DNA from: Struthio camelus
Taxonomy: Eukaryota; Chordata; Aves; Struthioniformes; Struthionidae
Length of the DNA: 64,000 bases
Direction of reading: 5' to 3'
NCBI RefSeq assembly: GCF_040807025.1
Contig: NC_090952.1
Coordinates: 5,906,001-5,970,000, forward strand
The position numbers and the translations under genes were made by a program. Shown piece by piece: positions 13,101-16,100 of this stretch. Below the pieces are notes generated by a model, which searched no databases, had not been told where the DNA came from, and worked only from the letters and a program-made list of their open reading frames with translations. Numbering within the stretch: position 1 is the stretch's first letter; every line of letters starts with the position of its first letter.

Positions 13101-16100
13101 CAGCTAAGGGCTCTCAAAGCCCGCGTCATTTGCTTTCCCAGAAGGCTTGTTCTGCCCCTTCGTGACCACCACCTCCGTTACCAGCTGACCACTTTCACCT
13201 AAGCTTGACCAGTGCGGAGAACTCAAGGCTCCTCAACTCAGGACATCCTGAGCGTGAGAGCTTCAGCGGGGAAGACAGGCAGACTGGTGTGTGCTGGACA
13301 AAGACAGACACCTTCACCAGCTGTGTCTTGACTCATCGCTTTCTTTCCAAACTGCTTGTCTTGCAGCTCTTCTCCTAGCAATGCTTGTGGCCAGCCAGCA
13401 TGTCACCGGCCCAGGTTCCTAATAGCTGGAGAGCCCGGCTACGGGCAAACTTCTCACTTGGCGCCTGCACTCTTACACGCGCTGGAGAGGTTTGCCGTTC
13501 ACGTGCTGGACCTGCCGGCTCTCTTTGCTAGCAGCACGCCACCTGAAGAAAGATGCACACAGGTACCGCTTCTCTCTGCAGTCTCACAGCATTAATAGAC
13601 TTCACGGGCTTAGCGGAGGCGGCCTGGCTTTCCTGTGCTTTCTGTGGTGTTTATGTTGTGCTGAAGGAACCCTTTTCTTGTACACTGAACAGCAGAGAAG
13701 CAGCATGTTGTGCAGGAGCATCTTTTCCATTGCAAGTGCCGCACAGTAAGGCTGTTGCTAGCAGCTCAGGGAGCTCCAAGATGCTCTTGAGAAACCTCTC
13801 TTCCTGGCAAGAGCTGCTGCTGCTGGCAGCGGGCTCCGCAGAGCTGTTTCCCTTGCCTCTTCAGGCTCTCTAGCTCCCAGGAGGCGCCTCTGCATCTGCC
13901 TGACTGCTGGTCATGCCCTTTCGCCAGCCTCCTTCTTTAGCAGACTGAACGGCAACCCCGGTTTGGGGCCAAAGAAAAGGGTTTCTTTTCTCTCAGCATA
14001 CCACAGGTATGCTGCTACTCGCTTCAGTGGTCTTCCCCAAACTTCCTTCTTACTAGTTGGTCCGAGAAGCCCAGAGGACAGCACCCAGCATCATTTATAT
14101 GCCACACATCCATGCCTGGTGGGAGGCTGCTGGAGTCACCTTGAGAGCTACGCTCACCACACTGCTAGAGCGCATTCCACCTTACGCTCCAGTGCTGTTG
14201 CTCGCTACTTCGGATGTTTGCCATGCAGATCTCCCGGAAGAGGTATTTCTGCCACCGCTTTGCCCGCTTTTCTCAGTCTCATGATAATTTATCACTCCCT
14301 GAAGTACCTCAATCCTGTGCCCTCCTAAGCACTTGGACATTGCTATTTCTAGGGCACCCTGCTGGCATCTCCTCCCTCGGGAGTTGCCACAAGGCTTCCA
14401 AGTGAAGGGCGGCAAGGCAAGGCAATCCACTGCAGGCCACCTAGGAGCTGGTGCGTGCCCTCCCTGGCCTCACTGGAACCTCGGCTCGCTGCCCTGAGCT
14501 TTCATCCTGGAGGTCTTCCTTACAGAAGACGCCCTCCAGTGCCGGGCTGACCCACTACAATCTTGCCGTGAAGGCCAAGAAGCAAACTTGTTCTAGTCTC
14601 CCCCTTATTCAAAGCATTCCTCGGCTTCCCTGAAAACAGTTTTCACCTGCTTGGAGTAGAGCACGAATCTGCGGGGGGCCTTAGGGCTGCACTGTCTTTT
14701 CTCCTCCCGCCTCAGGTGCAAGCTTTGTTTTCGGAGCTTTATGGAGAAGTCTTCAATGTCCAGCCACCCAGCAAGGAGGAAGGGAGAAAGCTTTTTGAGG
14801 ACTTGCTTCTCCACCAAGCTGCTCCACCTGCTGCACCACAAAGGAGAGCAGGTGGGAACTGTCCTACACATAGAGCTTTGCCATCGGTAGCTTAGCAGCT
14901 CTTTGGCATGTGTTTGGGTATTTGATTTCCTGGCATGACTTTGTACTCTGCTTGTGTCGGACTGCCATCGCTTGGCTAACCTGTTCTGGTTGACTGAAGG
15001 TTGCCACGCACTGGAAGTCCTGCCTGTGGCATCCCCACCTGAGCCTCGACTGCTGGCGGAGGAGGAAGAGCGGCAGCTGGAGGAGCAAGAGGAGCACACA
15101 TTGCCAGCGGTGCCTGCAGATGCCAGTACGCCCCTGCCTGGTGGCAAGTTCCCTCCTGTTTTCCTTTTTGTCTTGTTTTGCCTTGTGCACCAAGTAAGAG
15201 GACGATGCTCGATTTGGAAGACAGAACTGCTTAGGTAACGCTTTGGCTTGCTGCTTCTGCTATCTCTGTGCAGCTGTATGCAGACGAAAGCGAAGGCGGC
15301 CCACATCGCCCTCGGAGAGCCAGGCAGAGAAGAGGAGGAGATGGTCACCCGCTGCTGAGAAGGAAACTCACATCTGGCTCAGGGTAGGTTGCAGCTCGCT
15401 CATCTACCTTTCCTTCCCGCTCTGCTGCCGAGCCTGGAGCTCTCCAATATGCCAGCGGAGCTGCAGGCAGGGCCAACATGCAGCTAACACAACTGGAGCC
15501 TTGCTCTTTCTCTCAAGTAGGTCCAAGGAGCTCATTTCCTCCATGGAAATCCGGTGCCATGCTTAAGTCTGTTCCCTGACGTTTCACTCCTCCTTTATTT
15601 AGCGATACGAGAAAGTAGGATGAGAGTTGTGTTGGACTGCCTTCTTGTGTGTGTGTGAACACATCGAGAGCCTGCTCAGAAGATCTCGTGCTACTGTAAA
15701 TGTCTACTGTCTGGCTTTTTTCTTCAGCAGCTGCTGAATGCTGTGGGCGAGGCAACCAAGGACTGCAGCATACGCCACCTCGAGAAACTCCATCTGCTGC
15801 TCAGCCAGTGTATTTACCACCACCGGCAGGACAATGACAAAACTCAGTTAATCGAGGTAATTTGCTAAGTAGAGCCAAGCAGCAATTGTATGCATCTACA
15901 GATCCTTTTATTTTCTCTAAAGAACTCAGCTACCGAGGGTTTGCGTTTGTCTTCCAGCTTATAGCAAGCTTGTCTTTGTTTGGTTGGTGACTATTATTAT
16001 TTTTTATCTTCTTTTTTTTTGTTTTAGGAAATGAAGGAAGCAATTGAAAACTTCTCCCGTGCTCAGTAACGTGAAACTCAGAAAAGGGGCGTCTAGAATA

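What the first reader, a model, noticed from the sequence alone, without database searches (positions are those of the whole stretch)
15000..15383. The gene has lost the bromodomain, the part that defines ATAD2 function
E16 follows ATAD2 up to EEQEE, just before the bromodomain, and then runs into a Pro/Ala-rich tail; the next usable exon, E17, is a basic segment resembling the region after the bromodomain. No bromodomain signature (for example VPDYDTVIKQPMDL) was seen in any frame of the unit. The ATPase motifs of the first AAA domain and the C-terminus are intact. This suggests a motor without its acetyl-lysine reader, perhaps acting as an unguided histone remodeller or as a partner or competitor of the parental ATAD2 in mixed hexamers (inference).
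Basis: partly seen in the sequence, partly recalled or inferred. Interest (0 to 1): 0.85.

Follow-up and report, generated by a model that had tools for sequence, protein, structure and literature searches.

The report
Amplified ATAD2-like gene lacking its bromodomain
A second, many-copy version of the chromatin motor gene ATAD2 has lost, by one clean in-frame deletion, the part that recognises acetylated histones, yet its motor part still looks usable and selected for.

Summary
Confirmed and sharpened. The window (C11:5906001-5970000 of a held 1.45 Gb genome, probably a bird) carries 13.0-kb tandem units, each with an open 14-exon ATAD2-derived frame without a bromodomain. The genome's single-copy ATAD2 (C2) keeps its bromodomain, so the loss can be read directly: array position 15100 aligns inside ATAD2's first bromodomain exon, 15102 in the exon after the bromodomain. 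About 2.15 kb is missing between them and the frame is kept. "E16" is a fused exon; its Pro/Ala tail is the end of the old post-bromodomain exon. A second deletion of about 3.4 kb removed most of the C-terminal linker. The same junction occurs in 60 array copies (C11, C5, other contigs) and in a diverged, frame-broken C8 copy, so it predates their spread. All 9 C11 units examined are open. One C11 versus one C5 copy gives dN/dS 0.32 (0.22-0.46). I read it as an amplified AAA+ histone motor without its acetyl-lysine reader, under purifying selection. How it acts (alone or in mixed hexamers with ATAD2) and where (perhaps male germ cells) is inferred; I had no expression data.

The parts
1..64000 (+). 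head-to-tail tandem array, about 13.0-kb unit, five units (the last cut by the window end)
   Evidence: 99.83-99.92% identity of units 2-5 to unit 1; 15 SNP columns over the five units
8386..8501 (+). exon A: start of AAA1
9170..9344 (+). exon B: Walker A GPPGTGKT and pore-loop-1 region (labels recalled)
9642..9730 (+). exon C: Walker B FFDEID
10088..10247 (+). exon D: AAA1 with [10 protein letters not shown]
11328..11418 (+). exon E: AAA1
11642..11956 (+). exon F: AAA1 lid and linker to AAA2
12578..12650 (+). exon G: linker, 54 bp (18 codons) shorter than in C2 ATAD2; donor GTTGTT here, GTAACT in the C5 copy read
13367..13562 (+). exon H: start of AAA2 (the acceptor homologous to ATAD2 would start it at 13379; both keep the frame)
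14057..14242 (+). exon I: AAA2
14716..14851 (+). exon J: AAA2
15100..15102 (+). junction of deletion 1 (bromodomain): 15100 aligns to c2rc 41349, 15102 to c2rc 43498
15296..15381 (+). stretch in which the junction of deletion 2 lies; array sequence from 15381 on aligns to ATAD2 intron at c2rc 48293, so the exon L donor is former intron sequence
15728..15856 (+). exon M: C-terminal domain
16028..16069 (+). exon N: last coding exon with stop TAA; AATAAA follows at 16105
8045..8154 (+). exon before AAA1, similar to the ATAD2 stretch around the N-terminal linker domain ([35 protein letters not shown]); exact ends read by eye
6364..7121 (+). upstream exons related to one ATAD2 exon (YDLRQRK...YQAPLE in C2), apparently four copies by eye; start codon not resolved

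Best explanation
Shown: a duplicate of ATAD2, with introns, lost about 2.15 kb between the middle of the first bromodomain exon and the tail of the exon after the bromodomain. This fused the two exons in frame and removed the whole acetyl-lysine reader. A second deletion removed most of the long C-terminal linker. The bromodomain loss is shared by arrays on C11, C5 and other contigs (60 copies carrying the junction) and by a C8 relic, so it came before their spread. The motor part (AAA1, inactive-type AAA2, C-terminal domain) stayed open and constrained. Inferred: the product assembles as a type II AAA+ hexamer that pulls on histone H3/H4 through the AAA1 pore without being directed to acetylated chromatin. 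Most likely it also enters mixed hexamers with full-length ATAD2 and lowers the number of bromodomains per ring, in a tissue with high histone turnover such as the male germ line.
For: Junction at base level, same junction on C8 and in 60 array copies. AAA1 with lid and linker (exons A-F) is 254 of 315 residues identical to C2 ATAD2. Best solved match is human ATAD2 8h3h, E 2.1e-260, aligned up to EEQEE and again at the C terminus. 9 of 9 C11 units examined are open with AG acceptors and GT/GC donors. One C11 versus one C5 copy: dN 0.038, dS 0.120, dN/dS 0.319 (0.219-0.464), alignable-intron distance 0.105. Mixed hexamers: PMC4991664 passages. Germ-line role of ATAD2: PMC12818868 abstract and passages. 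Testis-biased gene amplicons in chicken: PMC9974502 section 9.
Against: No expression or protein evidence. In human ATAD2, H3/H4 crosslink to AAA1 but also to the bromodomain and C-terminal linker, and the authors suggest that this contact releases the N-terminal lock (PMC10539301 passages); the array protein lacks the one and most of the other, so the motor could bind histones poorly or stay locked. ATAD2 itself is described as having minimal ATPase activity (PMC13060104 passages). In Yta7 the two AAA+ domains plus the bromodomain are the part found necessary and sufficient for Cse4 interaction (PMC13050212 abstract). dN/dS is higher towards the C-terminal side (0.44-0.55 in I-J, K, M). One C5 copy has a stop in exon D; the C5 copy read has lost the exon L donor and shifted its stop. 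Start codon not resolved. dS against ATAD2 is near saturation. My confidence was 0.68 before I wrote out the three literature points above, and is lower for them.
Confidence: 0.6

Rival explanations
1. The locus makes a dominant-negative or buffering partner: bromodomain-less subunits mainly serve to poison or dilute full-length ATAD2 hexamers rather than to work on histones themselves.
Against: Walker A, Walker B and [10 protein letters not shown] are intact, which a pure inhibitor would not need.
Confidence: 0.3
2. The array is a tandem satellite that happens to carry a dead, truncated ATAD2 copy; open frames persist only because the copies were homogenised recently.
For: Units 99.8-99.9% identical; the C8 relative has a frameshift in exon D; one C5 copy has a stop in exon D.
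Against: The C11 and C5 copies compared are about 10% apart in introns yet 295 of 315 residues agree in exons A-F, with dN/dS below 1 and no coding indel in exons A-K; 9 of 9 C11 units examined are open.
Confidence: 0.17
3. The bromodomain is supplied by an unseen exon elsewhere in the unit or by trans-splicing or alternative splicing.
For: None found.
Against: No bromodomain signal in the unit or window; the only strong ATAD2-type bromodomain matches are on C2 and C3; the interval is deleted at base level.
Confidence: 0.02

Closest known systems
ATAD2 (this genome C2, about 160.150-160.179 Mb, minus; human ATAD2, PDB 8h3h)
   Same: exon order, AAA1, inactive-type AAA2, C-terminal domain, N-terminal linker region; of 11 exons compared whole apart from the fused one (A-J, M), 10 have the same length, exon G being the exception
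   Different: no bromodomain, most of the C-terminal linker deleted, tandemly amplified, repeated N-terminal exon
ATAD2B (C3, about 15.86-15.91 Mb)
   Same: AAA1/AAA2 layout
   Different: keeps its bromodomain; less similar to the array than ATAD2 in most protein matches; not compared at DNA level
Yta7 and Abo1 (yeast ATAD2 homologues)
   Same: AAA1/AAA2 motor that holds the H3 tail in the pore (Yta7: PMC9898759 passages; Abo1: stated in PMC10539301 passages)
   Different: both have a bromodomain tier; Yta7's binds histones independently of acetylation (PMC13050212 passages)
Testis-expressed gene amplicons of chicken dot chromosomes and HINT1W (PMC9974502: passages, section 9)
   Same: tandem or multicopy genes amplified to tens or hundreds of copies
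   Different: other genes; ATAD2 does not occur in that paper's main text; expression of the present array unknown

Membership tests
ATAD2-like bromodomain AAA+ ATPases | catalytic AAA1 with Walker A, Walker B and arginine-finger region | tested here: met
   (sequence only; motif labels recalled)
ATAD2-like bromodomain AAA+ ATPases | second, non-catalytic-type AAA2 domain | tested here: met
   aligned along its length to human ATAD2; exons H-J
ATAD2-like bromodomain AAA+ ATPases | bromodomain C-terminal to AAA2 | tested here: not met
ATAD2-like bromodomain AAA+ ATPases | long C-terminal linker | tested here: not met
   second deletion
ATAD2-like bromodomain AAA+ ATPases | C-terminal domain after the linker | tested here: met
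   8h3h third aligned stretch; exon M/N query finds 62 array-type places plus C8, C2 and C3, 65 in all
ATAD2-like bromodomain AAA+ ATPases | acidic N-terminal region and N-terminal linker domain | tested here: inconclusive
   homologous stretches upstream; start codon and full exon set not resolved
ATAD2-like bromodomain AAA+ ATPases | ATP-dependent hexamer acting on H3/H4 | not testable with these tools
   needs biochemistry
processed or dead pseudogene | no introns, or broken frame with dN/dS near 1 | tested here: not met
   introns kept and partly aligned to ATAD2 introns; open frames; dN/dS 0.32. The C8 copy, by contrast, has a broken exon D

The most novel reading that the evidence does not exclude
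A natural, massively amplified ATAD2 motor without acetyl-lysine reader that joins full-length ATAD2 in mixed hexamers and sets, by dose, how strongly the complex depends on acetylated H4. It would be a germ-line tuning knob for histone eviction, possibly driven to high copy by conflict.
Probability: 0.25. Interest if true: 0.82.

Novelty: new variant of a known kind. Interest (0 to 1): 0.62.

Why it matters
Drug work on ATAD2 targets its bromodomain (PMC10539301 abstract); whether the motor is useful without it is, to my knowledge, open. This locus is a natural deletion of exactly that domain, kept open and constrained since before two array families diverged. It is also a chromatin-motor gene with at least 60 copies, which raises dosage and germ-line-conflict questions. 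The listings of three literature searches showed no report of such a paralogue (limits given in the report).

Tried and rejected
Skipped-exon or missed-exon idea: rejected, because the interval is deleted at base level and profile searches are empty.

De novo Pro/Ala tail: rejected, because 49 aligned bases match the end of the ATAD2 post-bromodomain exon and its donor at 83.7%.

ATAD2B as parent: rejected on lower protein similarity (exon D 85% against 87%; most pieces); a DNA-level comparison with ATAD2B was not made.

Literature: one search listed 4 papers and two, none on this by their listings; one search listed 15 of 1,048 papers, none of which mentions ATAD2, so it says little. One search gave the general chicken precedent. 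One paper asked for is not held.

The tRNA, RNA-family and promoter tools were not used; the tandem-repeat scan showed only short repeats within the units.

Full report
WHAT WAS CHECKED. The window lies at C11:5906001-5970000 of a held genome of 1.45 Gb in 262 contigs. That it is a bird is my inference from genome size and the spread of contig sizes; no tool named it. The window is a head-to-tail array with a 13.0-kb period; units 2-5 are 99.83-99.92% identical to unit 1. Over the five units (the last incomplete) there are 15 SNP columns, two of them in the modelled coding exons, whose total is 1,950 of 12,999 bases.

GENE MODEL. Fourteen exons (8386-16069), each with an AG before it and, except the last, a GT after it, join into one open frame of 652 codons plus stop. 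If exon K ends at the donor homologous to ATAD2 (a GC donor, 15143) and exon H starts at the homologous acceptor (13379), the frame is unchanged and the product is 649 aa. With that model 9 of 9 complete units in C11:5870001-5990000 are open, out of 19 units on C11. The product's best match among solved structures is human ATAD2 8h3h (E 2.1e-260), aligned from AAA1 to EEQEE and again over the last 60 residues. Walker A (GPPGTGKT), Walker B (FFDEID) and [10 protein letters not shown] are intact; these labels are recalled knowledge of AAA+ proteins. Pfam gives AAA and AAA_lid_3, weaker families (mostly AAA-like), and no bromodomain among the 25 of 26 families shown at E<=1.

IS THE BROMODOMAIN REALLY ABSENT? 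A profile of three ATAD2-type bromodomains (human from memory, plus ATAD2 and ATAD2B of this genome), run with filters off on six-frame segments of 12 residues or more, gave nothing at E<=10 in the window and a best hit of E 4.6 in a 13.1-kb stretch holding one unit. It found ATAD2 and ATAD2B as three pieces each (E 7e-33 to 2e-15); these controls match partly by construction. tblastn at E<=1 gave no hit in the window and two in the stretch (best 0.47). Genome-wide, the human bromodomain query gave 21 matches at E<=1. The six best are three pieces each of ATAD2 on C2 (minus, 160.1567-160.1587 Mb) and ATAD2B on C3 (15.8815-15.8885 Mb). The rest have E 3e-6 or more, and the only one on C11 is at 25.8 Mb. 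None of 48 Pfam bromodomain matches lies in the arrays. Both searches score only the best candidates.

HOW IT WAS LOST. I fetched C2:160130001-160200000 and turned it (c2rc). Array exons and much of the introns align to C2 ATAD2 at about 65-84%. The alignment runs from array 14495 to 15100 (c2rc 40749-41349), then jumps: array 15102-15150 aligns to c2rc 43498-43546 at 83.7% over 49 bases. So 2,148 bp of today's ATAD2 interval are missing, holding the rest of the first bromodomain exon, the other bromodomain exons and the front of the next exon (exons placed). The reading frame is kept across the join. Exon K is a fusion of two exons, and its 'Pro/Ala-rich tail' ([13 protein letters not shown]) is the end of the old post-bromodomain exon (MPVVPVDSSTPLS in C2). 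A GC-type donor (G|GCAAGT) follows it in C2 ATAD2, in the C11 unit and in the C8 copy; in the C5 copy it reads GCAAGG. That this donor is used is inferred; a GT three bases upstream in the C11 unit keeps the same phase. The end of the following array intron aligns to the end of the corresponding ATAD2 intron (c2rc 44697-44818 spans its end and the exon start), so the K-to-L splice is the ancestral one. This answers, as far as sequence can, whether E16 joins E17 directly.

SECOND DELETION. The array aligns at the start of exon L to the ATAD2 linker exon, and from 15381 on to ATAD2 intron at c2rc 48293. About 3.4 kb is gone, with most of the acidic C-terminal linker exon and the following exon (DTCVLHMTRARRSQVEQQQL...). 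The exon L donor comes from former intron sequence.

HOW WIDESPREAD. A query spanning the fusion (47 aa) has 62 matches. Of these, 60 cross the junction without a stop: 19 on C11 at 100%, and 41 at 87% on C5 (16), C45 (5), C65 (1), C151 (8) and C224 (11). One on C8 crosses it at 71%. C2 ATAD2 matches only residues 3-36, that is, up to about the junction. A query with AAA1 exon D has 81 matches: 61 array copies, 19 on C11 and 42 elsewhere, one of these with a stop; a C8 copy in two frames; ATAD2, ATAD2B and other AAA genes. The exon M/N query has 65 matches: 62 array-type, C8, C2 and C3. The tool calls such counts lower bounds. The C8 copy has the same junction and a frameshift in exon D. The loss therefore happened once, before the C5, C8 and C11 loci parted (inference from the shared junction).

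SELECTION. One C5 copy (C5:4309001-4318000) has exons A-K of the same lengths as C11 and no stop. Over 560 codons, one C11 unit against this C5 copy gives dN 0.038, dS 0.120, dN/dS 0.319 (bootstrap 0.219-0.464). By part: exons A-F 0.27 (20 of 315 residues differ), H 0.10, I-J 0.44, K 0.55, M 0.52 (Nei-Gojobori counts, 300 bootstraps). Alignable parts of introns A-K differ at 9.8% of 4,212 sites, Jukes-Cantor 0.105, close to dS. Polarised with ATAD2, 19 changes fall on C11, 15 on C5 and 10 are unclear. Against C2 ATAD2 the C11 unit gives dN/dS 0.145, but dS is about 1.0 and near saturation, and that figure includes ATAD2's own constraint. Exons G, L, N and the 3' part of K were left out of these counts.

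AGAINST THE READING. The C5 copy read has lost the exon L donor by a further deletion; read straight on, L and M form one open stretch. Only one C5 copy was read; exon M sits in an open frame of 136 aa in some C5-type copies and 98 aa in others, so they are not all alike. Its last codons differ from C11. One C5 copy has a stop in exon D. The C11 exon G donor (GTTGTT) departs from that of C5 (GTAACT) and of ATAD2 (GTAAAT). In human ATAD2 the bromodomain and C-terminal linker are themselves histone contacts, and the authors suggest that their contact releases the N-terminal lock; ATAD2 is described as having minimal ATPase activity (PMC13060104 passages); Yta7's AAA+ domains with its bromodomain are the part necessary and sufficient for Cse4 interaction (PMC13050212 abstract). 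A protein without reader and most of the linker may therefore be a weak motor. I have no expression data, and the start codon is not resolved.

HOW IT PROBABLY WORKS. From passages read: ATAD2 has two AAA+ domains, a bromodomain and a long C-terminal linker, and an N-terminal linker domain that locks the hexamer (PMC10539301). Yta7's bromodomain tier can block H3 entry, and its AAA1 pore loops hold the H3 tail (PMC9898759). ATAD2's bromodomain guides it to acetylated chromatin; a dead bromodomain raised GFP-ATAD2 mobility, but partially, which the authors say might be explained by multimers with endogenous ATAD2 (PMC4991664). Germ-line use is suggested only by ATAD2 biology and by testis-biased amplicons in chicken (PMC9974502, section 9).

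NOVELTY. Searches for amplified ATAD2 in birds (4 papers listed, 15 of 1,048 listed, none mentioning ATAD2) and for ATAD2 without bromodomain (2 papers) listed nothing that reports this. I judged them by their listings; the library is open-licence PMC only. Loss of a domain after duplication and gene amplification are known kinds of change; an amplified, constrained, reader-less ATAD2 is, as far as I could see, a new variant of a known kind.

Noticed in passing
window 6364-7121 and the same place in other units: One ATAD2 N-terminal exon (YDLRQRK...YQAPLE in C2) appears about four times in a row in the array gene by eye; three array stretches align to the same single C2 stretch.
   Followed up: partly
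C11:4842285-4951276 (minus) and 5877097-5999137 (plus): Two arrays in opposite orientation about 0.93 Mb apart on C11, 9 and 10 copies by exon D and by exon K. A further exon M without D or K matches lies at 4969491, and a diverged one at C5:5957227.
   Followed up: no
C5:4277562-4470823, C45, C65, C151, C224: A second array family; the one copy read is about 10% diverged in introns from C11 and has its own C-terminal rearrangement (L and M fused, shifted stop).
   Followed up: partly
C8:805938-819699: A single diverged copy with the same bromodomain deletion junction but a frameshift in exon D: apparently a dead relic. Its exon M match also holds a TGA, which may lie beyond the exon end.
   Followed up: partly
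PDB 8h3h chain A: The deposited human ATAD2 chain is 831 residues and its aligned sequence passes from EEQEE to residues that, by recall, follow the bromodomain, although the paper describes aa 403-1390; the chain record seems to omit the unresolved bromodomain.
   Followed up: no
window 5306-5344 and equivalents in other units: A short TGCTC pentamer run differs between units: 7.4 copies in four units, 9.4 at 44298-44346.
   Followed up: no
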